DNA from: Liolophura sinensis
Lineage: Eukaryota; Mollusca; Polyplacophora; Chitonida; Chitonidae
DNA: 64,000 nucleotides
Assembly (NCBI RefSeq): GCF_032854445.1
Contig: NC_088295.1
Location: 41,777,385 to 41,841,384 of the forward strand
Direction: 5' to 3'
The translations under genes were made by a program, and so were the position numbers. Positions 5,379 through 49,200 of the stretch are shown here, one piece after another. The notes beneath the pieces were generated by a model that worked only from the letters and a program-made list of their open reading frames with translations, ran no database searches and was not told the DNA's origin. The number at the start of each line of letters is the position of its first letter. Within the stretch, counting starts at the first letter, position 1.

Positions 5379-5507
5379 AGTAGCAGCCCCGGATTTAAAC
5401 GCATGCGTACTTGAAGCTGTCTCTTTGCCACGTTGAGAACCGGTCACAGAGATTGGTGTGAATATCTCTCGCCAGAAGTTTTCTATCTTTCTCCTGCAAA
5501 AGTCATC

Positions 5508-5652
5508 ATGAAGTTGCAGTGGGCCTTCTTATTTGTTTGTGTATCCTTCGCACTTTCCGAAGACATCGAAGTTGAAGAAGATGTGCTGGTGCTGACAACG
5601 AAAAACTTCGACAAAGCCTTGGAAGACAACCAGTACATTTTGGTAGAATTCT
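5508..5652 (+). CDS. P4HB: PDI coding exon 1
   Basis: Starts at ATG with a hydrophobic signal sequence ([17 protein letters not shown]), then an acidic mature N-terminus and the first beta strand of the a domain (ILVEF). It ends T|GTAAGT in phase 1, splitting the Tyr codon just before APWCGHC. The a' domain is split at the same place by intron 8, a trace of the ancient a/a' duplication. Confidence 0.95.
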
Positions 5653-8600
5653 GTAAGTATTGGCAACTTGACAGCAAAAATTCCATTGATGCGATCGTGC
5701 TTTGTGATCAAATAGTGTAGGCGTTTTCGTGATCAGATGTTACGCAATAATTTAGAGTATGCTGTGTGAGAAACCGTCCATTATAGCTGAAAACTAGTCC
5801 CATAAGCTGATCATAATGAAAAAAAATAACATGCTTACATCCTAAGGCTCTATTTACATTGCGATACAATTAATTAGCTCTCAAAAATAGGTACCATACT
5901 CTTCTGATGAATTTATAAACTAACATCCGCGTAATGTGCTTAAGTAAAACTCCAGGGACAGCACCGTTATTCACATCATTGTATTCCAGCTGGTATGAGC
6001 CATGTGGTCAGTTAATGAGTTATCCAAAATAAGATGTGATGTCATAGTCTAGAATTATGTATCCTAGTTAACTTCTTGATAGAACCAATAAGTCTTATGC
6101 TTAATGGTTGTACCACTAGACGTTTGCATATGGCCCACTGCACTCCAGTGAAAAGAATCTGAGATCATCTCCTATCTCATCTCAGTCTGTGATAACAGTT
6201 GTTTTGAAGTTACTCCAATAAACTTTAACACATGCACGTGTGGAATTTGACAACAACATATGTGTATATGAATTTTAATGCCAGCTGTTAGTGATGGGTA
6301 GTTGGAAGCAGGAATTTGTATACTTGCTGAAACATACTGGTTACTTATCCATCTTTGGTTTGTTATAATTTCACTATTTCCATCCAGGTACACACATTAG
6401 TTGATAGCTGGGGTCCTGATAAAGAAGTGCCTAAGTTTGGAATTGTACATTATTTGTCTTTCTGCTGCAGTTGGCAATACATTTTTGTTAAAATTGTATA
6501 AATCATGGAATGATAATTATTTAAACTACCACGATGAAAATTCTCATTTTGATTATCTGATTATAGAACTTGCACTATTTCAATATTTTGTTTGAGTGGA
6601 ATTCATTCACAAAACACTTGTCTGTTGCTGTGCATTGTGTCCAAACCATACAAACATGCATGTTACTAGGTAGTGATCACTGCGTAAGTGTGATCTGATT
6701 TTACTGACGTTGAAGTCAAAAGGTTAACTGATCAGGTCTTTCATGGTTCGAATTCATAATTTATGCATTTAAAGTGCACCTTTTGTGTATGTAAGATACC
6801 TTCAGACATATTCTTCAACTTAAAATATGTTCAGCAAAGGGAAGAACTTGGCCAGTTCAAGTCAACTGTAAATTCACCCTGCAGCTATGGCATGTATAGA
6901 TCATTCTGCCAGTGACATGCTTGAGTGAACATACATCAGGACAGAGTTTAGACTGAGACATGCATGGGCGATAATTTATTCCTTTGAGGGAAATATTGTC
7001 TACCTTTGAACTTTACCATTTCACCCTTTATGATGCAGCTATTTGCAGCAAGTCTGTTATTTTACAATATTTTTTGTCTTGTTCCCATCATTGAACTACC
7101 CATCATTGGTATTTACGGTGACTTAATGTTATGTGTAGATGTTGTACATAATCTGATTATATTCAACTTTAATGTACAATTCAGCGACAGAACCCACACA
7201 AGGCCAATGTGACATTTATTTTGACATTTTCATACAGCTATTAAACTACAGGTTTGTCATGCTAGCAGTGTCAGTGTTAGTCACTGTTGCCAGAAATATG
7301 TAGCTTTATTTTTTCAGACTTGGTACCTCAGACTAATAAACCAGTAGGCATTATAGACCATGTCACAACTTAGTCCATTATCACAACTAGATAAGCCTTA
7401 GACTGGATAAGCTGGTGGTGAAAGTGTGTGTAGCCTCAAGCCATGTGTTACCAGCCCTTTTCGTGATTTATGAATTCATTAGGTACTGTAGCTGTTCTGT
7501 TGCACCAATGAGAGGCTGTCAATGTCTGCATGTTTTAATGAGTGACAGCTGTGTCATGCCTGCCAGAGATGTGTCCTTCAGGATTACTGTCCACATGTTC
7601 ATAGCCACATCAGCATTACCACATGGGCACATCCTCTACATCTATAACAACTGTAGACCCATCCCACCTTTTGCTCAGCAGACTGAACATAATTACCAAG
7701 ACATAAAATCTGTGTTGAAAGCAGCCAATAGTTTCTACAAACTTTTTTTCTTCTTTTTTTTTTTTTTTCTCTTCTGTTTTTTTTTTTTGTTTTTTTTTTT
7801 TGGTATTGCACTTCGAACCATGGAGATAGGGTCCAAAGACCTTCACTGAACACATGGAACTATTTAGTGTACAAAATCTTCAGTTAGTAAACCATTAGGT
7901 ACAATACTAACATGCACCAGATCTGAGACACTCTTGCTCTGGAAAGATGTATTAATACTGTTGCATCACAGCTGTTCAGTGACTTTAATGGAATGTCATT
8001 TTAATTAAGTAAAGGAAGTTTCTCACAAGATGTGATTCATAAGACTTCTCCAGAAAACGATACAAGTAGATGGTAAATATGATGGGATTTAGAATATATT
8101 CCATCTTTAGTGTTGAGCTGTTTTAAAGCTCAACACTAAACACTCTACCGGTATTATAAAAGATTAATGAATTTAAGGATTAAATAAATGGTAGGGGAAA
8201 AAAGGAAAGTTTGCATCAGAACTTTGTCTTTTTAAGAAGAAATGTACTCTGAAAAAATAGACAGCTGCCTGGCAAAATTTCATGAAGTGTACTAGCAGCT
8301 GGCTAACTACTCAATTTTCTACATAACTAAATGAATCCTCTGCTATGCAAGTGTCCTGAAATGAATATTTGCGTACAAAATGTACATGTGCAGTTGTCAC
8401 CTCTATTTTTCAGATGCCCCATGGTGTGGACACTGCAAGGCTCTGGCCCCAGAGTACGCTAAAGCTGCCACCCAACTGAAGGAAGAAGGCAGCGACATTA
8501 AGCTGGCCAAGGTTGACGCTACAGTTGAAAGCAGTTTGGCTGAGAAGTTTGAAGTTCGGGGATTTCCAACCATCAAATTTTTCCGTAGTGGAAAACCCAT

Positions 8601-11600
8601 TGATTATTCAGGTATGTTATGTTTATGGTGCAGAATCTTATCAATGTGTGAGTGAAGCCTTGCTGGTACTGTAATTCTTCAATCGTTTCGCATGTTTGCA
8701 AGATTTTTATTCAAGCATATTCTAACAACATTACTCCGTGTAGGCTGATAATATTATACTTTTGTGAAGCCTTGACACCAACCCAGCCAATGTCGTTTTG
8801 TCTCCAAAATCAAAGTAAAAATTTGCATAAATTGCACTGAAAGTTGCTCTTGCATATGTGAAAAGGTTGAAGAAATAAGGGTAATACTGTAATTGGAAAA
8901 TACTACCACATCACAACATATTAACAGTTATTCAATTTTTGAATAAATTGTTTACAAAAAGAGCATATTCTTTTTGTGCAACTAGTAGTTACTATTTAAA
9001 CAAGTTTTAGTGATTTTTAAGGCCTAGTTTCCATGTATTAAAAGCTACATATTGATCACAAACCAAATGTTGATCATGTAATTTGCATTACAGCTGGGAG
9101 AACTGCTGCAGATTTTGTGACCTGGTTGAACAAGAAAACTGGCCCACCAGCCACCACCCACGACAACGTAGACTCTGCCAAGAAGCAGATTGAGAAAGAA
9201 GAGGTCTATGTCATTGGATTTTTCAAGGTATGTGCATGTTACATTTCTTACCTGGCACGTTTTGATTTCCAATCAGAGACATTCCTTTGTGTGAATATAT
9301 GTCCTGAGGAATTAAGATATATATAAATAATATTCTTAATATCGTCTTGTGGTGTGACCAGGCATCAGGCTGATTTTTCTCCAGAACTAGAGGATGTGAA
9401 ATCAGATTCTGCCTGAAACAGTCACTTACGATTTGACCAATCAGAATACCAATAACAAGCACAGCCAGCTGTCTGTTTTAATTGACTGATGTAGTATTTT
9501 AGCCTGCAGTACATCAGATTATTTTGATTGATTTGGGAATCGTTCAGTTGCCTATTTGAGTGGCAAAAAAGATGCCTGTCAATAGGTTAATCATGAAATA
9601 CAGGTGAATGTTTACCTGAAAATTAGGTTAAATTACCTGTCCATTTAAAATCATGGTATTACTCTCTGTTGCACAGGATGTTGAATCTACTGCTGCCAAA
9701 GCTTACCTGGAAGCTGCTGCCGATATTGATGATCTTAACTTCGGTATCACATCCGATAACAAAGTTTTTGCTGAGTACAACATGGATAAGGATGGTGTTG
9801 TCCTCTTCAAGAAGGTTTGTCAAGATTTCTCTGTTGTTTTTTTAGAAGTTTTCAACAGTTCTATCCCTTCTCATTTTCATATGTTACCGAAGTATGAAAC
9901 TTCACGATTTAAGTTGATTCTTTGTTTACCAAAGACTCTTTATAGTTAGTAGTCTCCTCAGCATAAAATGTATATGGCAAATATGGCAAAAGCTTATATC
10001 AGCTTGAGCTGTCTTGACATGATTTTTAGTTTATTTGTTCATCATGCTATTTAATTTTCTATGAAGCCTTGGTTATTGACATACACCTATTCATTTTTCT
10101 TTCTTCTTCTTCTCTCTTTTTTTTTTAGTTTGATGAAGGCCGAAATAACTTTGAAGGAGAGATCACTGCTGCTGCTGTGAAGACTTTTGTCCAGTCTAAC
10201 CAGCTTCCATTGGTGGTAGAATTCACACAAGAGGTAAGCTGATTGTATTTTAAGATTTTTTACTTGTCTCTGTTAGATATATAGTTTAAGAAGTTCAAGT
10301 TGATGGTATTCCAGTAAAACAAAAGCAAAAACCGGCATGCTTAAGGGAGATTCCGAGAGTTACTTTAGTACACGTGGCCAAAGGCATCTTGTAGAAGACA
10401 AACAAATTTTCTTTGGCATTTCTGCCTATACTACAACATTACAGGCTTTAGGGACACCCTATGATTAAGCTGGGTTCTGGTTTTTTATGGAGTGGGGTGT
10501 GGTTATGGAAATTTTGAAAAGTGCTTTAACCTATACATAAATCCTGAGTGTTACAAATGGTTCACATAAAGTCCATAAAATGTACTTATTTTGTCACTTG
10601 GATTTGTTTGTCCAGCAGGAGAGAAATCTAGTTCATGCACACTGAAAACAGCTATCTTGCTTACTTAGACTGGCCTTGTACAAACACACATTAGTGATAT
10701 GAAAAAGAAAAACACATTTTCCCCTGTCAATATTTGCAAATGAATGTGTAGTTAAAATATAGTTGCAGGTTTTAACTAGTGGATTCTGATTTACAGAGTG
10801 CTCAGAAGATCTTTGGAGGGGACATGAAGACCCACATGTTGATGTTCATCAGCAAGAAATCCAGTAGTTTTGATGATAGCATTTCTGCTCTCAAAGAGGC
10901 TGCCACTGACTTCAAGGGAAAAGTGAGTGATGTTGCACATATTTGTTCAGGGGGGAATCCTTCATACACATTTTCAAGCATGTGAAGAAATTTACTAAGC
11001 AGGTAATGAAATGTAAATGATCGACGGATGCAACCAAGTTGTGCAGCTGCTCAATTCAGTTCAAGATACAAAGATCAGCATAATGTTAGGGTGAATATAA
11101 AAGAAGACAATGTGTTCTTTAACCTTCTATATTTAAGAGCATTCACTAAACAGTTGGAAATAGCAGTAAAAAGAATTGCCATGATGAATGTGAATTGTGA
11201 ACTTCAATTGGTGGTGAGTTTGTGCATGTTGCGCGAATATCGTCCATGAAAAGGACTCATGATAGAAATTTTTCTTGTTGTCAGATTCTGTTTATCTACA
11301 TCAACATTGATGATGATGACAATCAGAGAATCCTGGAGTTCTTCGGTCTGAAGCCTGATGAGTGCCCAGCTATCCGCCTCATCTACCTTGGAGATGACAT
11401 GACCAAGTACAAGCCAGAAAGCAACAATCTTGATGCTGCTTCAGTCAAATCATTTGCTCAGGATTACATTGATGGCAAGCTGAAGGTAATTGCAGCAGGC
11501 TGAAATCTCAATTTAACTGGATATAAAGAACCTAACAGGCAGAGAATTTTCTATGTAACATCAGATAATTTAGATTTCTAGAACTTTGAAACAGGAAAGA

Positions 11601-14063
11601 TTTTAGAGAGTAGGGCTTTATTTAATTTCTTTCAGTAGAATCGTCTCCCCTGATCTGCGACCTATGTTATTCAGATAGTGGCAAGTCTAAAAGACTAATT
11701 GTACATGTCTGACGGATTTCTGTCTGATGAATTTCTGGTGCACAAAGTGAGACATCATTGACGGTGTATTTCTGACTTTGTATGTATATCAGTAATTTTG
11801 ATAGTATACCGTCAGTGACTTTATATTTTACAGCCCCACCTTATGTCCGAGGATGTTCCTGCAGATTGGGATGCCAAACCTGTCAAAGTTCTCACAGGCA
11901 AAAACTTTGCTGAGGTTGCCAAAGATAAGAGCAAAAACGTTTTCGTAGAATTTTGTAAGTATGATCTGAAGTTTTACATGCATTGAAAAAAAAACAGTTT
12001 TTCAAAGAAAGCCCTTGCCAAATTATTGAACGTCATCAGCAATTTCTTAATGTAAAAAATAACTCAAGGACAGTATGTTTTATGGATTTTTTTTGTCAAC
12101 ATGCATTTTGAATCTTTATAAATTGTTTCTTTAAATTCTTTTGTCCCAATTATCATGAAATATTGTTAAAATGTTTCTGCTGCCCGAAAAACATAACCTG
12201 TATCTAAAAACACAAGTTTGCCCCATTGAGGGACCTGTTCTGTGAAGTTTGGTCTCCAAGCAACCTGGGAATGATCATGAGTTTCGCAGAGCACGACTTC
12301 CTCTCACCACAATGCCAGAAAAAGAAAATTTTTCTTGAGTATGGCATAAAACAAGTATCTTACAAAGATACTACAAAAACCTTACAAAAGTTCTCACTTT
12401 GGGCTCATTGAAATGCCTGCCTTCACCTGAACATGTTTCATTTCAAGAAACAAACAAGCAGTTTTAGCAGATCTGTCGTTGATAGCTGATTTTTTCAAGG
12501 TTAGTAAAAGGTTTTGTGTTCTTAACCCTTAGATGCCCCATGGTGTGGACACTGTAAACAGCTGGCCCCTATCTGGGATGAACTCGCTGAGAAGGTTGAG
12601 GGTGGAGATACTGTCATTGCCAAGATGGATTCCACAGCAAACGAACTAGAAGATATAAAAATTCAGAGCTTCCCAACTCTTAAATATTTCCCTAAAGATA
12701 GTGACGAGGTAAGTTCAACCTTCAGTTATGTCCAGTTGTTCCAGCTATGCAGCAGTAATCTACAAAGGCTTGAAAACCGACATTCTCATTAAAAGCAAGA
12801 AAGAAAAAGCCATGCATGCAAGTGCTGTTGTTCATCCAACATGTTTTGCTTGCTTTTGTGATGTTACTTGCCTTTATTTCAAGCAGAACAGAACATTCTC
12901 TATTACTCATTTAAATTTAAGAAAAATCAAAGACAGTAGTGAAAAATTGACCGCATCTGAGTACAAAATTGATTTTTGACCCAGATGTAATAATTGCTCA
13001 ATAATTATTTTCCAGAGGAAAAGGCCAGATGAGAATGTGAACATCTTCATAAAACCACTAATTTGTTTCTCTCCCAACAGGTTATAGATTATAATGGTGC
13101 TAGGACACTAGAAGCCTTACAAAAATTTGTTGAGAGTGGCGGAAAAGATGGAGCTGGTCCAGCTGATGTAAGTCATTTAACTGCTTTAGCCATGTGCCAG
13201 TATTCTGCATAAAGTGTGATGCTTTAACCACCAACCATTCTTCATTATGAATAATTATTTGTTAGTTATTGGTATTGGCTTAGTAGTGGTTCAAAGTAAA
13301 AGTTGGTAAAGAATTTGTCCCCATGGTTAAAGACTAAATCGGGGGCCTCCGTGGCTCAGTAGGTTAGCGCGCTAGCATAGCGTTATGACCCAGGAGTCTC
13401 TCACCAATGTGGCCGCTGTGAGTTCAAGTTCAGCTCATGCTGGCTTCCCCTCCGGCCGTACGTGGGAAGGTCTTCTAGCAACCTGCGGATGGTCGTGGGT
13501 TTTTTCCGGGCTCTGCTCGTTTTCCTCCCACCATAATGCTGGCCACCGTCGTATAAGTGAAATATTCTTGAGTACGGCATAAAACACCAATCAAATAAAA
13601 AAATAAATAAAGACTAAATCTTTTCCCCTAATAATTTTTAAGTCAACTGAACTCAGCTGGACAATTATAGATTCCTAAGCCAAATCCCAGTAGGATATAC
13701 ATTCCAATTATATAATAGCTGCCAGCACGGCGCAATGACTCAGGAGCCTTGCACGAATGCAGTCGCTGTGAGCTTGAAATCCAGCTCATGTAGGCTTCCT
13801 CTCCTGATTGGGAAGGTCTTGCAGCAACCTGTGGATGATCGTGGGTTTACCCCGGGCTCTGCCCAGTTTCCTCCCAGCATAATGCTGGAGGCCATCATAT
13901 AAGTGAAATATTCTTGAGTACGGCGGAAAACACCAATCGAGTAGATAAATAAAACATGTGAGCTAATATGAGGTACCGCACTTTTCAGGATGAGGAGGAT
14001 GAAGATGAAGATGAGGATGCTGAGGATGAGGAGGAGGAGGATCAACCAAAGGATGAATTGTAG
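5508..14063 (+). CDS. P4HB: Protein disulfide isomerase (PDI), complete gene, 11 coding exons
   Basis: Encodes a 501-residue ER-lumenal thiol oxidoreductase that forms, reduces and rearranges disulfides in secretory proteins. In animals it is also the beta subunit of prolyl 4-hydroxylase. Coding exons are 5508-5652, 8414-8611, 9094-9227, 9677-9814, 10129-10233, 10797-10922, 11285-11485, 11834-11954, 12533-12708, 13081-13167 and 13989-14063. All have GT-AG junctions with matching phases. The layout is signal peptide (about 17 residues), a domain with APWCGHC (Cys53/Cys56), b and b' domains, a' domain with APWCGHC (Cys394/Cys397), acidic tail and KDEL (498-501). The cis-proline segments GFPT and SFPT are present. 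Length and active-site positions match animal PDIA1/P4HB (508 aa in human, from memory). The ATG at 5508 starts the signal peptide; the reading frame stays open upstream of it but shows no ATG of its own. Confidence 0.96.
7738..7802 (+). repeat. Poly-T / pyrimidine tract in PDI intron 1
   Basis: A low-complexity run of T with occasional C or G, roughly 60 bp. It produces lysine-rich or phenylalanine-rich ORFs on the two strands that are not genes. Confidence 0.8.
8106..8140. repeat. Perfect 14-bp inverted repeat with 7-base loop
   Basis: TTTAGTGTTGAGCT (8106-8119) is followed by a 7-base loop and its exact reverse complement (8127-8140). It lies in PDI intron 1, about 270 bp before exon 2. 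The arms are too short for a typical microRNA precursor. It may be a relic of a foldback or MITE-like element. Confidence 0.7.
8414..8611 (+). CDS. P4HB: PDI coding exon 2 (first CGHC active site)
   Basis: Follows TTTTTCAG and opens with the second and third bases of Tyr, then [14 protein letters not shown]. It continues through the a domain to the cis-proline motif GFPTIKFF and ends G|GTATGT in phase 1. Confidence 0.96.
8664..8880 (+). repeat. Dispersed repeat family R1, copy 1 (PDI intron 2)
   Basis: Shares an ordered set of blocks with 58680-58890: 'GCATGTTTGCAAG', 'TTATACTTTTGTGAAGCC' (one T longer in the second copy) and 'ATAAATTGCACTGAAAGTTG', with similar spacing. It has no coding potential that I can see. 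The ends are not defined, and the family is unnamed. Confidence 0.6.
9094..9227 (+). CDS. P4HB: PDI coding exon 3
   Basis: Completes the a domain ([19 protein letters not shown]) and begins the b domain. It ends in VYVIGFFK, the first b strand, with AAG|GTATGT in phase 0. Confidence 0.95.
9677..9814 (+). CDS. P4HB: PDI coding exon 4
   Basis: b-domain segment, 46 codons, phase 0 at both ends. It is the redox-inactive thioredoxin fold, with [14 protein letters not shown] typical of animal PDI. It ends AAG|GTTTGT. Confidence 0.95.
10129..10233 (+). CDS. P4HB: PDI coding exon 5
   Basis: 35 codons after a long pyrimidine tract and [18 protein letters not shown] ends the b domain and [10 protein letters not shown] opens b'. 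Phase 0 at both ends. Confidence 0.95.
10797..10922 (+). CDS. P4HB: PDI coding exon 6
   Basis: b'-domain segment, 42 codons, with [17 protein letters not shown]; b' carries the main peptide-binding site in this family. It ends AAA|GTGAGT, phase 0. Confidence 0.95.
11285..11485 (+). CDS. P4HB: PDI coding exon 7
   Basis: 67 codons finishing b', including [20 protein letters not shown] and the x-linker, ending YIDGKLK with AAG|GTAATT, phase 0. Confidence 0.95.
11834..11954 (+). CDS. P4HB: PDI coding exon 8
   Basis: [20 protein letters not shown] opens the a' domain and VFVEF leads into the second active site. It ends T|GTAAGT in phase 1, mirroring exon 1. Confidence 0.95.
12247..12353 (+). mobile_element. 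Diverged SINE fragment in PDI intron 8
   Basis: Recognisable only in parts: AGCAACCTGGGAATGATCAT near the left end and TTCTTGAGTATGGCATAAAA at the right. Both match ordered blocks of the common SINE in plus orientation. This is an old copy. Confidence 0.45.
12533..12708 (+). CDS. P4HB: PDI coding exon 9 (second CGHC active site)
   Basis: a' domain with [20 protein letters not shown], then AKMDSTANE and the cis-proline motif SFPTLKYFP. It ends GAG|GTAAGT, phase 0. Confidence 0.96.
13081..13167 (+). CDS. P4HB: PDI coding exon 10
   Basis: 29 codons ([20 protein letters not shown]) closing the a' domain. It ends GAT|GTAAGT, phase 0. Confidence 0.95.
13341..13608 (+). mobile_element. Full-length tRNA-derived SINE with target-site duplication
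   Basis: Best-preserved copy of the common family. The head has an A-box-like TGGCTCAGTAGGTTAGCG (13352-13369) and a B-box-like AGTTCAAGTTC (13421-13431). A long conserved body (GTGGGAAGGTC, CTCCCACCATAATGCTGG, TATAAGTGAAATATTCTTGA) follows, then an AAATAAATAA tail. It is flanked by AAAGACTAAATC (13329-13340 and 13609-13620), which fits a target-site duplication from LINE-driven insertion. The conserved body recalls the MetaSINE superfamily, from memory and unchecked. It lies in PDI intron 10. Confidence 0.85.
13721..13957 (+). mobile_element. Common SINE, second copy in PDI intron 10
   Basis: Same orientation and family as the copy 110 bp to the left, but older: part of the head is lost and the body has many substitutions. 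It ends in a degenerate AATAAA tail about 30 bp upstream of the exon 11 acceptor. Confidence 0.8.
13989..14063 (+). CDS. P4HB: PDI coding exon 11 (acidic tail and KDEL)
   Basis: 24 codons plus TAG. An almost unbroken run of Asp and Glu is followed by QPKDEL, the ER-retrieval signal. Acidic c-extensions of this kind are typical of PDI and bind calcium. Confidence 0.96.
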   Translation, partial: DEEDEDEDEDAEDEEEEDQPKDEL

Positions 14064-19266: not shown

Positions 19267-22200
19267 CTGTCAACAGACAATGGTATTTATTTATTTATTT
19301 ATCTGAGTATTGTTTAATGCCATCCCAGTACTCAACAATTTTACGCTTACACGTTGGTGGTCAGATTTATGGGTGGAGAAAACTAACAAACAATGTGTCT
19401 CATTGTATACGTCATGTAAATGAGACAGGACGATGACGACAATTATACCCTCAAGGTATATTTATATAACCAATTTATGAACAAATTTGCATTCTGTTTC
19501 ATAAACGACTTAGCTTTGGACAAAAACTAGAACTCTTCAATGAGAAAAGGTATAAAACATACACACACTGATGTAGAGGCAACAACATAAGCACAGATGA
19601 AAGGCAGTTATTCAAAGTTTTGCAGTGATGTCACTGCTGCCATGAGGCAATCATCAACATGACTTTTGGTCACCTGACTAAGAGTACTGGAGGTGAAAAC
19701 AAAGCAAATTTAATCAAAATGTATCTAGCCTTCAAATATGATAGTTTTAATGCCCTGTAGGACTTTAGACTTAAAGAATTGGCAAAAAACAGCATTCCAC
19801 CCATATCACATCCTGCACCTTGCAAGGAACCCCTGTGCTCCAAACTATGAACATATGCACAAATACTTCCCTGGTACATTTTCTGTAGCAGGTTACTTAC
19901 TGAAAAGTGGATAATGTTTTGCCTCACGCCTATTGCAGTTTCTGTGGGCCATGCTTGCAGCTTTTGCATGGCCACCAGCTGACTTGAGCCACCTCCATAG
20001 TAGGTGCAAAATTTACAATCTATAGAGGGCATAGATTTGTTTTGAGAAAGACTAAGTCGTAAATATTATGACTTAGGACAGGCCTAAGCCTAAAACCATT
20101 GTAAGTAACCCTCAAAAGACAGACCTATGACCAATGTACATGACTGTACAGTTACCTGAGGCACTAAGAACTGTATCGTCCTGCTCTCCTGCCCTCCCCA
20201 TGTAGCCATCTCCATCATGAAACCCTTCATGCATTTGAACACCAGCTCTGCCCTCTTTAGGCACCAAGGAATGGTCATTTCCTGACAATTAAACAAAATA
20301 ATCATTGCCATCTTCATGTATGTGCTAGCATCTCTCCATTATGCAAATAGGGCAATGACCCACAGAATGATATCAAAACATCTCAGTTTCAGAAGGCCTT
20401 CCAACACTTCTCTTTCTTTATGTTTAAGAGGAAAATTAATTCCTGGGGCATCACTTGGACTGCAAGATTTTTCAAAGCTCATGGTATCATAAATCGTCAT
20501 TATGACATTTTAAGCAAAAAAGTTTCCCAATTTAAGCAAAACCCAATCACTAGAGAGCATGTTGTAGGTCATAACTGCACATCTGGATGTTTCAAATTGA
20601 GTGTGGTCACATGAGTGTTGCTTTTCACATATGATATAGTGAAGACCGTGAATGGCCAATGATAAACAAAGCCCATCACTATGACACCCTGTGCTCAGGT
20701 TGCAGATCACTGTCAAGGGCTTATTTCTTTATCCCATGCCAAATATAGTTACCTGTGGATGGTCGTGGATTTCCCACAGGCTTTGCCCAGTTTCCTCCCA
20801 CCATAATGCCGGCTGCCTTCGTATAAGTGAAATATTTTTGAATACAGCATAAAACACCAATCAAATAAATAAATATTGTAACAGATTAGCAGATTACTGG
20901 AGTGCTGTCCCTTACCTCAGACATCTCGTGTGTGAGGAGGAGAGGGATGGTAAGGGTGTGAATGTCGTATCTGAAGCAGGCCTTCAGAATATTGCGAAGA
21001 GAAAGGATGACTGGGTGACGAGAAGAGATGTCTGAGGACCTCACGCTGTCGTCTGTCACCAGATGGAATATCACAGACACCTCTGACAAGTTGGAATGGC
21101 GTGTTATGTAGAAATCTCCTGTGTACAGTCGACTACTTTTATCCTGCAATGTAAATTTGCTCTCGTACAGATAATTACATTCAGCTGAAATTGATAAACT
21201 ATCACACAACATATAGTTTAAATGTTCACGTACATTAGATATGAATAGTTTAATGTCACCTTAGCAATATTTCAGCTTTTCATGGTGAAAAAAAACATGG
21301 GGTTTTATGTCAGTGTAATAAAGAGATAAGGAATTATTTTGTTGAAAACTTCAATTCTAAAATTTAATTTGTTAAATTGTCATACTGGGACTGTTTGTAT
21401 TCTAAAACATCATAAATGCCCTGGTTATGATTACAATGTTAGCAGCTACTGTAAAATGGTTGAATCTAACCACACATATAACTCTGTACATTACCCTGAC
21501 CATCACTAGAACTACTCACACTGCTCTGTATACGGACTTGACCCATCACTAGAACTACTGGCACTGCTCTGTACACTGACTTGACCATCACTTGAACTAC
21601 TGTCTGCTCTGTACACCGACCTGACCATCAGTAGAACTACTGACACTACTCTGTACATGGATCTGACCATCACTAGAACTACTCACACTGCTCTGTACAC
21701 GGACTTGACCCATCACTAGAACTACTGGCACTGCTCTGTACACTGACTTGACCATCACTTGAACTACTGTCTGCTCTGTACACCGACCTGACCATCAGTA
21801 GAACTACTGACACTACTCTGTACATGGATCTGACCATCACTAGAACTACTCACACTGCTCTGTACACGGACTTGACCATCACTAGAATTACTGGCACTGC
21901 TCTGTAGATGTATCTGACCATCACTAGAACTACTGACACTACTCTGTACACTGATCTGACCATCACTTGAACTACTGACACTGCTCTGTACACTGACTTG
22001 ACCATCACTTGAACTACTGACACTGCTCTGTACACCGACCTGACCATCAGTAGAACTACTGACACTACTCCGTACACTGATCTGACCATCACTAGAACTA
22101 CTGACACTGCTCTGTACAGGGATCTGACCGTCACTAGAACTACTGACACTGCTCTGTACAGGGATCTGACCGTCAATAGAACTACTGACACTGCTCTGTA

Positions 22201-25200
22201 CAGGGATCTGACCATCACTTGAACTACTGACACTGCTCTGTACATGGACCCGGCCAACACTAGCACTACTGACACTGCTGTGTGCATAGACCTGACCATC
22301 ACTAGAACTACTGACACTGCTTTGTACATGGATCTGACCATCACTTGAACTACTGACACTGGTCTATACATGGACTGGACCATCACTAGAACTACTGACA
22401 CTGCTCTGTACACTGATCTGACCATCACTTGAACTACTGACACTGCTCTGTACATGGATCTGACCATCACTTGAACTACTGACACTGTTCTGTACATGGA
22501 CCTGACCATCACTTGAACTACTGACACTGGACATGGATCTGACCATCACTTGAACTATTGGACACTGCTCTGTACACGGACTGGACCACCACTAGAACTA
22601 ATGACACTGCTCTGTACACTGATCTGACCATCACTAGAACTACTGACACTGCTCTGTACATGGATCTGACCATCACTAGAACTAATGACACTACTCTGTA
22701 CAGGGATCTGACCATCACTTGAACTACTGACACTGCTCTGTACACGGACTTGACCATCACTAGAACTACTGACACTACTCTGTACACTGATCCCTACCAA
22801 TCACTAGAACTACAGACACTGCTCTGTAACATGGATCTGACCATCACTAGAACTAATGACACTACTCTGTACAGGGATCTGACCATCACTTGAACTACTG
22901 ACACTGCTCTGTACACGGACTGGACCACCACTAGAACTACTGACACTACTCCGTACACTGATCTGACCACCACTAGAACTACTGGACACTACTCTGTACA
23001 TGGATCTGACCATCATTGGAACTACTGACACTGCTCTGTACATGGATCTGACCATCACTAGAACTACTGATACTGCTCTGTACACTGATCTGACCATCAG
23101 TAGAACTACTGACATTGCTCTGTACATGGACCTGACCATCACTAGAACTACTGACACTGCTCTGTACATGGATCTGACCATCACTAGAACTACTGTCTGC
23201 TCTATACACAGACCTGACCATCACTAAAACTACTGCCACTGCTCTGTACAGGGATCTGACCATCTCTTGAACTACTGCCACTGCTCTGTACAATGACTTG
23301 ACCATCACTTGAACTACTGTCTGCTCTGTACACTGACCTGACCATCACTAGAACTACTGCCACTGATCTGTACACTGACCTGACCGTCACTAGAACTACT
23401 GCCGCTGCTCTGCACACTGATCTTGTCCCCTTCCTCTGATAGTCGCTGCTGTTGTCTCCAGTCATTCGCTCGTATCACCTGCTGCTCTACATTCTGCAGC
23501 TGTTTCTCCAGGTCAGGGAAGTGGAAATCTGATGACTGTTCACACACGCGGTTAAATGCTGCAACACAGAAAGATGGCCATCAAAATTCACTTGTTTATT
23601 CGTTTATTTTTTTTTATTGTTACTCTATACTCAAGATGGTGGCAGTCAGTTTTACAAGCCCATTACAATTCCATGACAAAATATCACAATATTTTCTGAT
23701 GATCTCATGACACAACAACATCAGTAATCTGAGGATCAAATTATTAGATTAGAAATTTCCCATGAACAACAGTAGGCAGTTTTACCAATTTTACTTAATT
23801 GGTGACAACCACTGACAGGTGCAAATTAAGATGTTGAAATTTCACTTGAAAGGTGATGGTTATAAAAACTATGTCATTTGTGTAGCAAATATAAGTAGAC
23901 GGTATTTATTCTGGCCTTGGTGACAGGTGAGTTACCTCTCTTGAGTCCTGTGTAGGTGTTGAGCCTGTTATCCACCAGGAGGACAAGACCACACAGAGAG
24001 TTAGAGTACAGGGACATGGCTGTCTGTAGTCTTTGTGGCTGGGGCACCATCACACCGCTGACAGGGAAATAACCAAGAAATAATCTAGTGACCAAGGTAT
24101 CCAATCCTGCTATAACTGTATTGATCAGCTATATGTAGATGCTGCAATCGCTATATGTTACACAATACGTACTTGCAGGTATCCCCATCTCTCCTGACTT
24201 TTGTAATTATGAGGAATATTAAGAAACAAGCCCACTTATACTGGGTAGTTGAGACTCGTTAGCAGGGTAACACTCAAACACAAGTCAAAACGCCCAAAAT
24301 CTGTAAAATGTGGCCAATAAAAAAATGAAAAAATAAAGCTATGCTCTTTATTACATTAATCAAATCTTGACAATAGTGGTAAGAAATGATGTAACAAATG
24401 TGAACAGATTTACATGTGGTCAGCTTTGGAGATACTGTCTCTTGCTCAAAACTACTCAAATTAAGAACATGCACAAATATGGAGATAACTTCTAGATGCC
24501 AAAATAAATGCCAAATGGAGAAAAATTTACCAACCCAATAGTAACTGCTTGGTGTCTACAAAGATCTAGTACATCCATACACAGTAGACGGAGATTGTGA
24601 GTTGTCTTCATTTGAGCTCCTGTTTAACAAGACATATTGATTGCTTTTAATAATTTTGTTATGACAAAGCATGACAATACAATATTTGACAATCTTCTCA
24701 AAACTGTTGTCTGTGGACTACTGACCAAGATGTTGGTAAAACTCTCCTCCAGTATAAGATGTTTGCCCCTGCCTGTGATGAACGGTTGAAGAGGTTGTCA
24801 ACTACACTCACCTAGATGAACGGTAAACTCTCCACCAGTCTAAGATGTCTGCCCCTGTCTGTGATGAACGGTTAGTGAGATTGTGGACTACACTCACCTA
24901 GATGAATGGTAAACTCTCTATCAGTCTAAGACACCTGTCCCTGCATGTGATGAACTGTTAGTGAGGTTGTGGACTACACTGAATGGTAAAACTCTCCTTA
25001 GTCTGTAAGACATCTGCTTCTGTCTGTGATGAACTGTTAGTGAGATTGTGGACTACACTCACCTCGATGAATGGTAAAACTCTCCTCCGGTCTCTAAAAT
25101 GTCTGCCCCTGTCTATGATGAATTGTTGGTGAGGTTGTCGACTACACTCAACTAGATGAATGGTACAACTCTCCTCCAGTCTGTATGACATCTGCCCCTG

Positions 25201-28200
25201 TCTGCGATGAATTGTTAGTGAGGTTGTGTACTACACTCCCTGGATGAATGGTAAAACTCTCCTCCAGTCTCTAAAATGCCTGCCCCTGTCTGTGATGAAA
25301 TGTCTGCCCCTGTCTGTGATGAAATGTTAGTGAGGTTGTGATCTACATTGAGTGGTAAAATTGTCCTTAGTCTGTAAGACGTCTGCTTCCGTCTGTGATG
25401 AACTGCTAGCGAGATTGTGGACTACACTCAACTAGATGAATAGTACAACTCTCCTCCAGTCTGTATGACATCTGCCCCTGTCTGTGATGAACTGTTAGTG
25501 AGGTTGTGGACTACACTCACCTAGATGAATAGTAAAACTCTCCTCCGGTCTCTAAAATGTCTGCCCCTGTCTGTGATGAATTGTTGGTGAGGTTGTCGAC
25601 TACACTCAACTAGATGAATGGTACAACTCTCCTCCAGTCTGTATGACATCTGCCCCTGCCTGTGATGAATTGTTAGTGAGGTTGTGTACTACACTCACCT
25701 GGATGAATGGTAAAACTCTCCTCCAGTCTCTAAAATATCTGCCCCTGTCTGTGATGAAATGTTTGTGAGGGTTGTGGACTACATTGAATGGTAAAACTCT
25801 CCTTAGTCTGTAAGACGTCTGCTTCCGTCTGTGATGAACTGCTAGCGAGGTTGTGGACTACGCTCACCTAGATGAATGGTAAAACTCTCCTCCAGTCTGT
25901 AAGATGTCTGCTCCTGTCTGTGATGAACTGTTAGCAAGATTGTGTACTACACTCACCTAGATGAATGGTAAAACTTTCCTCCAGTCTATAAGATGTCTGC
26001 CCCTGTCTCTCATCAGCCTCTGCTTCTGGCATACTGTTGGTTAGGGTACGAACTCGTTGACTGAAAATATACATCAGGAATATACAAAACATAACGTTTA
26101 GTGCAGTTGTTATGCAGAGCAGATTTAGGTAAAGGAAATCTACTCAACATTCACTTCACTGAATAACCTTCTGGAATGATAGCAAACAAGATATCCTCAT
26201 TTCATAAAGATGCATGATTAGTTCTTGAGATATTTCCGTAACGGATGGACATACAATGTACATGACCTTGTACGTGTTTAACAACACCTAAGGCTTGTTA
26301 TGAAACGAAAGAAAAAGGCAACCCAGAATATGAAATTTTCATGTTCCATGTTGATTCACTTAGATTCCACAAGCAAAGTTTGTGTCAATATTCCTTAATA
26401 CTGACAATTATGATGTTTTTGTCTGATTTATTTCACAAACAAAATCCACGTCAATATTCCTTAATACTGACAATTACCATGTTCTAGATTGATTCATTTC
26501 ACAAACAAAATCCATGTCAATATTCCTTTTTTATTGAATCGTCTATTAAAGTGAACATAAAGTCAGCCATTAAAGCTGAATTAATTAATAAAGTAGTATT
26601 CCAGAAATGTTCTAAAATTATTTTTAAAAATTCTACACCGCTTATCAACAAACTAAATTGCAAACAATCACCAGTGCCTAGCCACTCATTTGGTGACACC
26701 ATTTTGCCATAATATATAAATATCAAGAGTAACATCACAAAACCTAGGAGCTCTCCCATACCATCTGTATTAAACAATGTGACAATGAGAAAATACAAAC
26801 AAAAAACACCTGATATCCAACCAAAGAGTATCAGCTCTGTTCCGTGTTCATTGGGACTACGTTTCTTTTAGTTTCGCGCTCAGTCAGATTGATGTTCATT
26901 GACAGCTGCATCATGATTTAGCGGTCCTGCTCATCCTCGTCATCTAGCGGGCTATACCTACTTCAGGGAATTTACCGAACATAACAGGACCTTGATAACA
27001 GACCCTTTCATTCAGATTTTGGGAACACATTTTCGTAATAAATCAGATTTTGCTAAGGAAAAATAATGCAAAGTGACAATATTTTTCTTCAAGCAATGAC
27101 TCTCTCGAGGCAGTTTTCTTGCCAGCTCGCCCCGAGAAGTTACTGCTGCCTCCTGCCCAACATGTACACATTGTGACATGGGCAACCTTTTGCTCATATG
27201 TGTGGTTCAATATGCATCAATTTAATTCCCAAACTAACCGCAAAATGCAACTTATTACATCAATATTTTTTGATCCACTATAAGAAACCTCACTGACAAT
27301 CGAGAGCTGATAGGTTTTTTGCCGTGACAGGGAATTATCATGTGACGCTTTCAGCCCTAGTGATTGACCCAGTTCATGAAGGCTTCTACAATATACATGT
27401 ATGGCTAGTCGGAGTGAATTGTCCGTCAGTGCCATTTCCCCAATGCTGAACTTCATCTCCTCAGCTTTCAAAACTTTATAGAACTTTTTACATATTTCTC
27501 TGTGATAACTGTGTCCTATATCATTTTTTCTATGTACATATAGTGGTAGGCTTTATGTCCATTTTATGTTGACAAGTCTGGATAGCAGACAAAGGAACTC
27601 ACACATATCCTGGTGCTGTTGTGTTGGCCTGGGTGTCCTCATGCACCTTCATCACCCACTCTCTGTATTCACGCTTCTGTAACTCCTGCAGATTGCTTAG
27701 CTCACTGGCCCACTTACTGCTGATCAGCTGTAGTGAAATAAAGCAAAGACAGACATTTATTTGATATGTTTATCAGATTGGTGTATGATGCTGTAATATT
27801 TTCTAAAATGTGTGTGCCAAAAATCAATCATCGATCTCCGCTAGGTAAGTGACAAAACTCCTCACTTAAGCCACAGCTAAAGCAGCAAGAACCGAAAAAG
27901 AACACACAATTTCAGGCATGGACCTGATATAGAGCGGACAGATGTGAAATTCACGTTTAAAGGTAATATCACTTGAAGAGTGTTTCACCAATATAATGTG
28001 ACTTGGTGTTCAGCAGTGAATAAAAAAAGGTGAACTAGATTTTGTGAGAGTGGTGTTAGTAAACTCATCCATCACACCATCAAACATACACACAAACCAA
28101 CTGCAGAAATAGGTCAAACAGATAGAGTATCCCACATATTGGTAGATAGCAGGGCAATCTAGACAGGCATGAACCCCCAGAGTAATCCCCCTTGACAAGC

Positions 28201-34200: not shown

Positions 34201-37200
34201 TTTTAACCAATATACACAAAAATGTAGCAAGAATATTTATTCCCCTTTTTGTTCACATGGTTAGTCCATACAATGACCAACATATTTATGTCTTTAATTT
34301 TCCAAAAAAAAAAAAAAAAAAAAAAAATGGAAGAGAAATGTAATTCTTTGCTTTAAGGCAAAATTAATATCTGTCCTAGAAATGAGAAGGATGAGGGTAC
34401 ATGTATGAAGGCTTACAACGGCCATGGCCTGTGAATATGAAGTTACCTCCAAGGTTAGTAAACAAGCTATACTTATGAGACTTCTCCCATGGGCATATTG
34501 GAAATTTGTTAACAACTTTAAACAATTTTGTCGGGAAAAAAAGGCACACATTTTTTCGCACAAGCCATAGAGTTTGGTGACACACTTCCCCAGGCAAAAT
34601 TGACAAAAAAATACATGACAAATTCATAAAATCACTTCAGTCCGGAACCCACATGGTGTGCCTGGGAATTTGGCTGTTAACTGTACGCAAGGGGGCATCA
34701 AGGATATTATCAAATAACTGCGGTAATCATGTCGAAATTGCAAAATCCCTCAGGGGGGGCATGCACCTAAATGTTTGTTTTGTAAAAGCATAATCCATTT
34801 AAAGAGATGGAGAGAAAGATCATACATGAGTCTGTTTAAGGAGGTTCATTACTTGGTATAAATGCCAGATCACTTATAATGATGCATGTACATGGTTTAC
34901 AGGGAATATAAGGAAAGTTAAAAGGCCACAGTAGAAACACCATAAAACTGTATCTGAAGTTACCAATTTTTGCTACACATCTACGTTCAGGCCTGAATAA
35001 AATTCTTCTCAACTTTGCTCATGTAAATTTAGGCCTGTGCATGACAAATCGAATCTGACTTTAAACACCTGTTTTAAAAAATGGGGGGAGACATCAGTGG
35101 CAATTATCACGGTCCTTGAAGTCCCCCATTACAATGTAAACATTTAACTGTATTTAATTTAGCAGTAAACTTAGATATGGTAGCAAGGCTACCAAGGAGC
35201 CCACCTGTAGGAGACACATGATTAATTTATTTATTTGATTGGTGTTTTACGTCATGCTCAAGAATATTTCACTTTTACAATGGTGACCAGCTTTATGGTG
35301 GGAGAAAACCCACGACCATCCACAGGGTACTGGCTGACCTTCCCACGTATGGTAGGAGACACATGAATGCAAAATTGAACAGATATAAAAAAATACACAA
35401 AAACCTTGTGAAGTAATTTACGCTCCTAAGCATACATGCAGGACATCAACAATAGAACATCCCGCTCATGTCATTGTGCCTTACAGGTATGATAAATTTT
35501 AGCTTAACACACCCAGTATTTTTTGCGATGCCACCCCTCACATTTGCCTAAACGTGGATTCTATTATACACAGACACTGAATCATGAATTCTATAATTTA
35601 CAGCAATTACTTCAACACAAAAACCTGAGGTCAATAAATGACGTACTTTTTAAAATACCACCCCTAACATTTACCATAACATTGCTTTCATCGTCATTAG
35701 ACGCCTACGTTGATGCTTGGGGTAGGACATTTATCTATACAGGCAAACTAAACAGCTGATGTTTACATTACTTCATTATGTTTTCTACCTTTAAAGTTCT
35801 GCATCAGCCTTGGCAAAGAAAAGAGTGAAACAATACACACATCACTACTTAGATGGAATCAAGAAGAGAAAAGAATGAAAACAATACATAAATCACTACT
35901 CTGATGCTGTTGTACAGAGGGAATTGTGTTTAATGGACCTTGCAATATTTGCCTTCCGTTTCACTCATGGTTCAACAGACCCAATGTAGAACAGAGACAG
36001 TAAATGTTTTGACCTATGAGCATTATGACCACAAAATGTCAGTTGATGAACTATAAACCAAGAGTGACATCCGAGCTAGTTTCTGAATTATCTTTCCAAA
36101 GTTTCCATGAACAATGAACAAACTGCATTTTTATTCCCCTGGTAGCAAACCTCACAAATGTTCTTTGCAACTTCCGACATGTTTCCCTAAATATTAGGAA
36201 GCATCTGGCCCACGAGTTTTACACGTAAAGAAAACACTGCATGAATGAATGTTAATAAATTATACACTGCATTTACAAACCTAGAATGGTTGGAAAAATG
36301 ATCAATGAACAAAACTAAGATACAAAACTCAAGAGTCATAATGAATAAGCACACAACTCATACTGAAGAATGAAGATGGGTAACCATTATGTATATCTCT
36401 TACCAAAGTCAGAGAAACACTTTGTACCAATGACCGCAAAACTCCAGAGCCACCCCGAATAAGCACAAAAACAGAGAAATGTTAATTAGCAATTACACCA
36501 AAACTCCAGAGTCATACGGAATAAGAACAAAACTCATACAGAAGAATGAAGATGGGTAACTGTTATGTATCTCTTACCAAAGACAGAAAAATGCTATGTA
36601 CCAATGACAGCAAAACTCCAGAGCCACAACAAATAACCACACAACTCATACAGAAGAATGAAGATGGGTAACTGTTATGTATCTCTTACCAAAGACAGAA
36701 AAATGCTATGTACCAATGACAGCAAAACTCCAGAGCCACAACAAATAACCACACAACTCATACAGAAGAATGAAGATGGGTAACTGTTATGTATCTCTTA
36801 CCAAAGACAGAAAAATGCTATGTACCAATGACAGCAAAACTCCAGAGCCACAACAAAAAACCACACAACTCATACAGAAGAATGAAGATAGGTAACTGTT
36901 ATGTATCTCTTACCAAAAGACAGAAAAATGCTATGTACCAATGACAGCAAAATGCCAGAGCCACACTGAATAAGTACAAAACTAACACCACAAAATGAAG
37001 ATGGGTAACCGTCAAATGAATCAAGCAGTCTGATTCACGATTCAACGAATGTTTGATTTAAAAAAAAATATTTATTAACTGCTGTAAAGCCATCAAAAAC
37101 AAAATTGCCATGTGTTTCTGCATGTGTACACTGGCCTGGAGTGAATTTAAAGAGGAATGGATTAAACATCAGTTCTCTTTTAATATGAGTAAATCCTGGA

Positions 37201-46200: not shown

Positions 46201-49200
46201 ACATTGTCACTTATGAGGTCCCTGAGTAATCACTATCATGACTTCACATAATATCTGTCTGTTGAAGGACTTTAAGGGTTACTATAAGCCGTCTAACACA
46301 GAGTGTTAGCACGTCTAGTGTAGATGGAATTGGGTACATTTCCACTCACAGGGTTCTCAGTCTACGGACACAGATTGGTTTCAATAAAAATGATTGGATA
46401 TGAGATTGGGCTGGAGTAGATGTGGATGTAAAGAGATATTGCGGGGACAGTAGCTGAATTCACCTCCTGTGTCTCAGTTCTGAACCTTAGCACAATTCCT
46501 CAGTTGTCAGGCCAGTAATTACCTGGCCGAGTGCCAGGGACAAGAGGTGACCAGTCCGTCCCCAGCATCGCTGACCACACACACTTAACTCCAACAACTG
46601 ACCAGCCAGTGGGTCTGAAGGGAGCTGGCAGGGGGAGACAACAGCAAACATTATTACAGCTATTTGTCTGGAACCGTGAGCAGACCAACAGTCAACTTTG
46701 TCCACAAATGGACCGTCTGCAGGGCTCAGCACCAGACACTGCCAAATATAGTTGATCGGTTTGTCCGGGTGCCAACGAGTAGCACCCTGGATTGACAGGA
46801 AGTCTGTGGCTTAGGCACGAGGGAAGTCTCAATTCAGGCCAGTCAATTGCCGTCAAGTATCTGTCCCCGGGTGTGATAGCTGACTAGTCTCTGGTCAGAG
46901 TTAATCTCTGGCTATACCCATCTTCCTCAATATCAAGGACATTGTTGTAGATCCACCGTAAAGAAATATCAGGAAGAGCTAACAGCAGGGCTCTGAATTC
47001 TAAATTATAGCTGTTCAAAGCACCTCAATGAAAATGTCAGTGTTTTTAACGATTGGCCCAGCCCCTGACCTCTCTATCTAAAGGTCATCGCTGATCACAT
47101 CGAGTAGCCTCTGGCACCATTATTGACTCTATGCTCAAAAATTAGGGCAATAAATTAACCCAGATTGTCTAGTGAAAGCCAGAGCATATTAGCTGAAAAT
47201 TATTGACGTAATCATCTCACACCATAAGGTCCATGGGTATGTGGAATGGAAGGGTGCTGACGTAACTCATTTCCGCTGGATGTCAGATCTATCTTCTGGG
47301 CACACAGTCAAGGGTGGCGATCAATAATTACACTGCAATACATGACTGAATGATTCTCGGAATAACTAAAGCTTAACAATGAATCTGCATTGCTCCAGAT
47401 AATGGTATTGCTAAAAAACTGCGGTAAAATGTAACAGCTATGACATTTCTTCAGGGAGTAAAGCTTAAAAACACTTAAAATGAACCATTTGATAGGCACA
47501 CCTAATGCATGTATGCATCTTAAATGCCAGTATGTCTTCTTCAATATCACAGAGATATACACGTACAAAACGAATATCAAAGCCACTTGGCACTTTCCCC
47601 TCAATAAATGTTGAAGCCCAAGTCTCAAATGCTCCTCAGAGCATCAGATACTAAATGTATATTTTTCTTTTCACATGAATCACGTTTTGTGATAGTAAAT
47701 GAGGTGAACTGAAATTTCAAAATTCATACAATCAATCAATACAATCAATAACGTAACACTTAATACACACACTTTGTCCTGAAGATTTTTTTTTGTCTTT
47801 AAATTTACACAGTATATGAGTTTAAGTGGCAGCTTTAGATGACTGTACACCTGATTCGAGCTACTAACAAAAGCCAAGACAACCAAAACCATTTTTTTAC
47901 CAAATTACTTCATTTATTTGATTCGTGTTTTACACATTACTTACGTTTTGCACGTATAAAATTTGGCCACAAAATAATTTTGAAAAAACCATGTCTTTGA
48001 AAACTGGAAGACTAGTTGATGCAATCATAAAACCTCTAACTCTAATGGTTTGACGTAAATATGGTCTTCTAAATCTGATACAATATTGGCTATCATAAAG
48101 TCAAGGTTTAATGACTTTTTAAAGAAAACAATAGATAAGAAAATCATATTATTTCAGAATTAAGAGGAAGGCAAAACATATTCAAATATTCAAAATGTAG
48201 ATCAAGATGTACTGAAACTTATGCACAAACTTAATACCTTACTTAGGGACTAACTCACAACATCTCACCTTACTTCATAACAACAAACCAAACACAAATG
48301 CCATCCTAGAATGTACCTTAAGCAAGAAAAAAACAAAGAAAAGCATCCTATTCAACATCTCAGCACATAAACAATAAAGGTAGGAATCCTCCTCATCAGT
48401 GTATTAACCTATACTGATGAGTGAGGAAAATCTGTACTGATGAGCGAGCAAAATCTGTACTGATGAATGGGCTAAATCTGTACTGATGAGTGAGAAAAAT
48501 CTGTACTGATGAATGGGCTAAATCTGTACTGATGAGTGAGAAAAATCTGTACTGATGAGTGAGCAAAATCTGTACTAATGAGCAAGCATAATCTGTACTG
48601 ATGAGTGGGCAAATTCTGTACTGATGAGTGAGAAAAATCTGTACTGATGAGTGAGCAAAATCTGTACTAATGAGCAAGCAAAATCTGTACTGATGAATGG
48701 GCTAAATCTGTACTGATGAGTGAGCAAAATCTGTACTGATGAAGGGCAAAATCTGTAGTGAAGAGTGTGCAAAATCTGTACTGATGAGTGAGAAAAATCT
48801 GTACTGATGAGTGGGCAAAACCTGTACTAATGAGCAAGCATAATCTGTACTGATGAGTGGGCAAATTCTGTACTGATGAGTGGGCAAAATCTGTACACTG
48901 ATGAGCGGGCAAAATCTGTACTGATGAGTGAGCAACATCTGTACTGATGAGTGAGAAAAATCTGTACTGATGAGTGGGCAAAATCTGTACTGATGAGCGA
49001 GCAAAATCTGTACTGATGAGTGGGCTAAATCTGTACTGATGAGTGAGAAAAATCTGTACTGATGAATGGGCTAAATCTGTACTGATGAGTGAGAAAAATC
49101 TGTACTGATGAATGGGCTAAATCTGTACTGATGAGTGAGAAAAATCTGTACTGATGAAGGGCAAAATCTGTAGTGAAGAGTGTGCAAAATCTGTACTGAT

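What the first reader, a model, noticed from the sequence alone, without database searches (positions are those of the whole stretch)
21482..23558. Coding minisatellite crossing exon 9 / intron 9, with a donor inside the repeat unit
The exon 9 frame runs into a 42-bp array, and the best phase-0 donor (CAG|GTCAGT at 23380) is part of the repeat unit itself. An identical donor sits exactly one unit downstream (23338), so the protein could carry one or two copies of a 14-residue Ser-rich linker without a frame change. Beyond that, a 40-bp unit brings a TAG. The repeat units thus act as exon, donor and intron at once, and array changes could directly alter the protein linker.
Basis: partly seen in the sequence, partly recalled or inferred. 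Interest (0 to 1): 0.8.

Follow-up and report, generated by a model that had tools for sequence, protein, structure and literature searches.

The report
Minisatellite copying a gene's splice junction
In a chiton gene (FERRY3) two introns are built almost entirely from tandem copies of the exon end and splice site that precede them, a kind of repeat known from amphioxus and apparently common in this mollusc too, so the protein is probably normal and the repeats are mostly intron filler.

Summary
On the minus strand, the exon at 23558-23380 of a FERRY3/C12orf4 homologue (Pfam Fy-3) runs into a 42-bp array (21496-23423, 46 copies by TRF). Its best-supported donor, CAG|GTCAGT at 23380, lies in the array. 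An identical donor is one unit on (23338), in frame; the next unit (40 bp) brings a TAG.

Profile scores favour the first donor: 174.4 bits with one unit, 169.3 with two, 168.4 with none, 145.8 if the exon stopped at 23479.

The arrays fill 84% and 93% of their introns.

Such boundary-copying minisatellites are known as "mirages" in amphioxus. In this chiton genome (Liolophura sinensis, by assembly statistics) they are common: 11 of 234 sampled donors, 5 of 234 acceptors. Outside the 42-bp array, 50 of 59 downstream donor copies still look strong, and using 53 of the 59 would break the frame. I infer that splicing normally takes the first donor and the rest is intron. A minor two-unit isoform is possible but untested: no transcripts were available.

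The parts
23380..23558 (-).
   Evidence: Pfam Fy-3 profile 303-357, over the cut-off; phase 0 join to next exon gives an uninterrupted frame
21496..23423 (-). 42-bp minisatellite, 46 copies by TRF, crossing exon end, donor and intron
   Evidence: TRF; unit list; one place reported in the genome
23379..23382 (-). Preferred donor CAG|GTCAGT, last exon base 23380, inside array
23337..23340 (-). Identical donor one unit on, last exon base 23338, in frame and open
21144..23379 (-). Intron, 2236 bp, of which 1884 bp (84%) is array
   Evidence: for ends and length; array ends
20916..21143 (-). Next exon, phase 0, Fy-3 profile 356-432
25957..26060 (-). Upstream exon whose tail and donor seed the second array
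   Evidence: Alone a weak Fy-3 match, profile 211-239, 14.5 bits, under the cut-off; joined to its neighbours part of one 407-bit stretch; donor TAG|GTGAGT; start read from the AG
24712..26008 (-). Second array, 86-89-bp unit; units copy exon tail plus donor plus intron start
   Evidence: TRF; 11 junction copies
24620..25956 (-). Intron, 1337 bp, of which 1245 bp (93%) lies within the span of the second array
   Evidence: array ends
24535..24619 (-). Exon after second array, Fy-3 profile about 238-262
   Evidence: 24.5 bits alone, just under the cut-off of 25.8; phases and frame
23936..24057 (-). Exon between the two array-bearing introns, Fy-3 profile 267-302

Best explanation
This is a boundary-copying minisatellite of the 'mirage' kind. 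A short stretch holding the end of a coding exon, its 5' splice site and the start of the intron was tandemly duplicated, and the copies then multiplied into the intron by ordinary minisatellite turnover. The spliceosome normally uses the exon-proximal donor (23380), so unit 1 is coding, units 2 onward are intron, and the protein carries one 14-residue Ser-rich unit. The same happened, with an unrelated unit, at the donor at 25957 in the same gene, and at roughly one donor in twenty among conserved exons sampled from this chiton genome. Shown: anatomy, phases, second array, survey counts. Inferred: the duplication mechanism and first-donor use.
For: Arrays span exon tail and donor at 23380 and 25957. 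Phase-consistent exons join into one open frame, and the joined piece of six exons scores 407 bits to Fy-3. The one-unit linker scores best: 174.4 bits against 169.3, 168.4 and 145.8. Survey: 11 of 234 donors and 5 of 234 acceptors have strong junction-spanning copies in the adjacent intron. Outside the 42-bp array, 50 of 59 downstream donor copies score about 7 or more on a donor matrix written from memory, and using 53 of the 59 would shift the frame or meet a stop. This is what one expects if the first donor is normally chosen. Amphioxus mirages are reported not to disturb regular splicing (PMC3087553 and PMC3902484, passages).
Against: No transcript was available, so donor use is not shown. 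The gap between one and two units (5.1 bits) partly reflects the insertion cost of any profile and is modest. The second donor of the 42-bp array is identical and in frame, so sequence alone cannot exclude its use. The donor itself is middling (8.5 of a maximum 12.7 on the recalled matrix). In the second array two later donors score higher than the first (12.1 and 11.2 against 10.5), which the first-donor reading must overrule.
Confidence: 0.82

Rival explanations
1. Both donors (23380 and 23338) are used, so the gene makes two proteins differing by 14 Ser-rich residues, and changes of the array change the linker in individuals.
For: Identical nine-base donors 42 bp apart, phase 0, no stop between. 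The two-unit version still matches the family (169.3 bits).
Against: The one-unit version fits the family better. In-frame open donor copies also occur where use seems implausible: six in a row in a TCP-1 gene.
Confidence: 0.15
2. The exon ends upstream at CAG|GTGATA (23479) and the array is wholly intronic.
For: A phase-0 donor of fair score (7.1) is there.
Against: Family profile matches continue to position 345 past this point and the score falls from 174.4 to 145.8 bits if cut there.
Confidence: 0.03
3. About its origin, compatible with the best explanation of its splicing: a neutral intronic minisatellite that happens to extend a little into a tolerant linker; the splice junction has no special role in its birth.
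For: Intron interiors in this genome hold tandem copies at similar or higher rates: 33 of 285 positions after donors (in 9 of 62 exons) and 16 of 292 before acceptors (in 6 of 64 exons), first sample only. TRF arrays of period 10 or more cover 8.7% of the sampled 222,883 bases, exons included. The donor excess is not significant for junction copies (11 against 5 of 234, Fisher p 0.20), and a test that does not rely on the predicted junction gave 11 against 10 of 234 (p 1.0), or 11 against 6 if at least 5 coding bases must be reached.
Against: Array starts near donors lie in the exon in 12 of 35 cases, against 4 of 34 array ends near acceptors (Fisher p 0.044). This was a later test on the same sample, is borderline, and arrays near two exons may be counted on both sides.
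Confidence: 0.45

Closest known systems
Amphioxus 'mirages' (Adh, globin, troponin C, PGBD5 genes)
   Same: Minisatellite-like tandem copies of an exon-intron boundary, splice signals inside many units, unit lengths of 10-160 bp in globin and Adh3 (PMC3087553, PMC3902484, passages)
   Different: Here a mollusc; more copies (46 by TRF) than the 3 and 6 reported for the two haplotypes of BflGb6; unit 1 and the next donor are in frame. Splicing and instability were tested in amphioxus, not here
Internal tandem repeats at exon-intron boundaries of human genes in segmental duplications
   Same: Minisatellites at exon-intron boundaries that can alter splicing and coding length (PMC2812944, passages including part of the abstract)
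   Different: Those are in recently duplicated primate genes with transcript support; here a gene family reported at one place in the genome, without transcripts
Intron gain by tandem duplication of AG/GT segments
   Same: Tandem copies bearing splice signals (described in PMC3087553, passages; PMC4974935, listing only)
   Different: Here existing introns appear to have grown; no new intron is shown

Membership tests
Mirage (boundary-copying minisatellite) | Tandem repeat unit spans an exon-intron boundary of a real gene | tested here: met
   Both arrays span exon tail and donor; exon identity by Pfam
Mirage (boundary-copying minisatellite) | Copies lie in the adjacent intron and many carry splice signals | tested here: met
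   42-bp array: 38 junction copies over the alignment threshold, CAG|GT in 8 of 38, one scoring as high as the first donor; second array: 11 copies, 6 strong donors
Mirage (boundary-copying minisatellite) | Does not disturb regular splicing | not testable with these tools
   No transcripts held
Mirage (boundary-copying minisatellite) | Length instability between alleles or somatic cells | not testable with these tools
   One assembly only
FERRY3/C12orf4 (Pfam PF10154 Fy-3) | Profile match over curated cut-off, exons in order on one strand | tested here: met
   9 matches in order on the minus strand, 7 of 9 over the cut-off, none reported elsewhere (the tool warns that a missing match does not show absence); one of the nine has four stops inside and may span an intron; joined 280-residue piece 407 bits, cut-off 25.8

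The most novel reading that the evidence does not exclude
In chitons, minisatellites born across 5' splice sites are a widespread way in which introns grow and exon ends evolve. Because the spliceosome takes the first donor, copies spanning a donor are nearly free while copies spanning an acceptor are costly, giving a donor-side bias. Where the unit is a multiple of three and the exon's last unit belongs to the array, as in FERRY3, unequal exchange or donor choice changes the protein in whole-unit steps.
Probability: 0.2. Interest if true: 0.6.

Novelty: new member of a known kind. Interest (0 to 1): 0.38.

Why it matters
In the held literature boundary-copying minisatellites are described in amphioxus, with a related class in human duplicated genes. 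My searches showed no molluscan case, though most subscription papers are not held and some listed papers were not opened. Finding them at about 5% of sampled donors in a chiton suggests that they may recur across animals as a route of intron growth. It gives a natural test of which of many near-identical donors the spliceosome picks. It also suggests a hazard for gene prediction, which may call array units as exons (an amphioxus case of this is told in PMC3902484, passages).

Tried and rejected
No solved structure matched the exon pair by sequence at E up to 1. I first thought donor copies were much favoured over acceptor copies (3 strong donors and no acceptor among 70 exons). Enlarging the sample to 234 exons weakened this to 11 against 5 (p 0.20), and the test that ignores the predicted junction gave 11 against 10. 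I lowered the probability of the novel case from 0.25 to 0.2 when I added this last count. I considered that decoy donors in the array are purged by selection. In the 42-bp array 26 of 38 copies read CAG|AT (18) or CAA|GT (8), but the exonic left edge of unit 1 already reads AAG|ATCAGT, so copies of that edge can explain the first class; elsewhere 50 of 59 donor copies are strong. Long open frames inside the array (199 and 231 aa) are expected of a repeat whose unit is mostly a multiple of three and are not evidence of coding. The donor matrix and acceptor score used were written from memory and serve for ranking only.

Survey bookkeeping: 71 of 74 listed matches were taken (three from long single-exon matches left out) and 70 were fetched. 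From I transcribed 189 of 254 rows by hand, leaving out mainly long matches, rows with several stops or long open frames, and low-ranked rows; a filter (open frame at most 200 aa, match at most 300 bases) left 169. 140 of 143 regions were fetched, giving 164 exons. So 234 exons in all. The filter may bias against arrays with long open frames. Junctions were chosen by score near the profile match end, not from transcripts. About 325 bases on each side were compared, so long units are missed. In the sixth L043 copy the donor ran off the fetched stretch and counted as not strong.

Listed papers that I did not open include PMC4974935 and PMC3862624.

Full report
What the window is. The window lies in an assembly of 609,464,459 bases in 632 contigs. 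A published chiton assembly has 632 scaffolds, longest 96,433,062, N50 37,343,639 (PMC11068029, passages). Of the 11 contigs that I could compare with its table, nine have identical lengths and two differ by a few thousand bases (C6 and C10). The total also differs slightly (609,495,693 in the paper). Its authors later corrected the species to Liolophura sinensis (PMC12441733, whole text). The identification rests on these numbers. The gene on the minus strand is a homologue of FERRY3, formerly C12orf4 (Pfam PF10154 Fy-3). Nine matches lie in profile order on one strand, seven of them over the curated cut-off, and none is reported elsewhere in the genome. The name and its place in the FERRY Rab5 effector complex are from PMC11928052 (passages).

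The observation. TRF places the 42-bp array at 21496-23423 (46 copies, 86% matches), and a search reported it at one place in the genome. In 20 shuffled versions of 21000-24000 TRF found nothing. The exon reads through unit 1 ([14 protein letters not shown]), and CAG|GTCAGT follows at 23380. Unit 2 ([14 protein letters not shown]) ends in the same nine bases at 23338. Unit 3 has 40 bases and gives SVQSRQ and a stop.

Which donor. Joining the exon to the next one (acceptor before 21143, phase 0) and scoring the protein against Fy-3 gave 174.4 bits with one unit, 169.3 with two, 168.4 with none and 145.8 if the exon stopped at CAG|GTGATA, 23479. The profile keeps matching after 23479, up to position 345, before the next exon resumes at about 356-359. 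This argues that the exon runs into the array, and it modestly favours the first donor. It cannot exclude use of the second.

A second array. The finding does not mention that 24712-26008 is an 86-89-bp array built the same way. Its unit copies the tail of the exon ending at 25957, the donor TAG|GTGAGT and the start of the intron. The exon phases fit: the last base of that exon plus GA of the exon at 24619 give a glycine codon, and five exons join into one open frame. Eleven junction copies follow, six with strong donors, two of them stronger than the first (12.1 and 11.2 against 10.5). None of the 11 can be used without meeting a stop. The arrays make up 84% (1884 of 2236 bases) and 93% (1245 of 1337, by array span) of their introns (ends).

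How common. I took exons of TCP-1 chaperonins, tRNA synthetases, myosins, adaptins and kinesins from the same genome (rows left out are told under Tried and rejected). For 234 of them I asked whether a 45-base stretch across the predicted junction has a copy in the adjacent 310 bases of intron. Strong copies (z at least 10 against shuffles) were found at 11 of 234 donors and 5 of 234 acceptors (Fisher p 0.20). A version that does not rely on the predicted junction gave 11 against 10 of 234, or 11 against 6 when at least five coding bases had to be reached. Intron interiors are at least as rich: 33 of 285 tested positions after donors and 16 of 292 before acceptors, measured in the first set only and clustered in 9 of 62 and 6 of 64 exons. 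With arrays called by TRF (period 20 or more), 12 of 35 arrays near a donor begin in the exon, and 4 of 34 near an acceptor end in the exon (p 0.044). A donor bias is therefore at most suggested. At 11 of 234, two such donors in a gene of ten donors have a chance of 0.08, so this gene is not exceptional.

How it probably works. Across the 13 donor arrays (two here, 11 in the survey) I found 97 downstream junction copies over an alignment threshold. In the 42-bp array only 1 of 38 copies is a donor as good as the first. In the other 12 arrays 50 of 59 copies score about 7 or more, yet use of 53 of the 59 would shift the frame or meet a stop. The remaining six are all in one TCP-1 gene, where a 66-bp unit repeats GGGATEMALAQ, imperfectly and in frame, six times; adding 22 to 132 residues inside that fold seems implausible. 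The simplest inference is that the first donor is normally used and the rest is intron. This agrees with reports that amphioxus mirages do not disturb splicing (PMC3087553, PMC3902484, passages). The mechanism of birth (tandem duplication across the junction, then minisatellite turnover) is inferred; the distal end of the array shows a repeated block of about 167 bases (units 33-36 and 37-40), as expected of such turnover.

What is known. The amphioxus globin paper describes tandem duplications of exon-intron boundaries, called mirages, with unit lengths of 10-160 bp, different copy numbers in two haplotypes, splice signals in many units, and a model for intron gain; it says that both 5' and 3' boundaries can be copied. 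The PGBD5 paper adds a further case and mentions troponin C and Adh. In human duplicated genes, repeats at exon-intron boundaries can change splicing (PMC2812944, passages). The original Adh work is cited there; I have not read it. My searches showed no molluscan report of this kind. Among molluscan hits, an abalone gene has a polymorphic minisatellite in an intron, with no splice-site overlap mentioned in the passages seen (PMC6905558), and a gastropod hemocyanin paper treats intron gain without repeats in the passages seen (PMC7931591). Earthworm metallothionein introns hold minisatellite-like repeats (PMC12783039, passages). The library lacks most subscription journals. This is therefore a new member of a known kind, in a new phylum as far as I could see.

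Noticed in passing
   Followed up: partly
24530-24545: The exon ending near 24535 must, by phase, use a weak donor GG|GTTGGT although TTG|GTAAAT lies four bases on.
   Followed up: no
48412-49995: A 23-bp array of 69 copies (TRF), open over long stretches in several frames on the minus strand.
   Followed up: no
36466-37009: A 112-bp tandem array of 4.8 copies with 92% matches.
   Followed up: no
5415-14055: Plus-strand open frames resembling exons of a protein disulphide isomerase (APWCGHCK motifs), named from recall of the motif only.
   Followed up: no
21520-21880: Distal end of the 42-bp array has a higher-order repeat of about 167 bp (units 33-36 and 37-40).
   Followed up: partly
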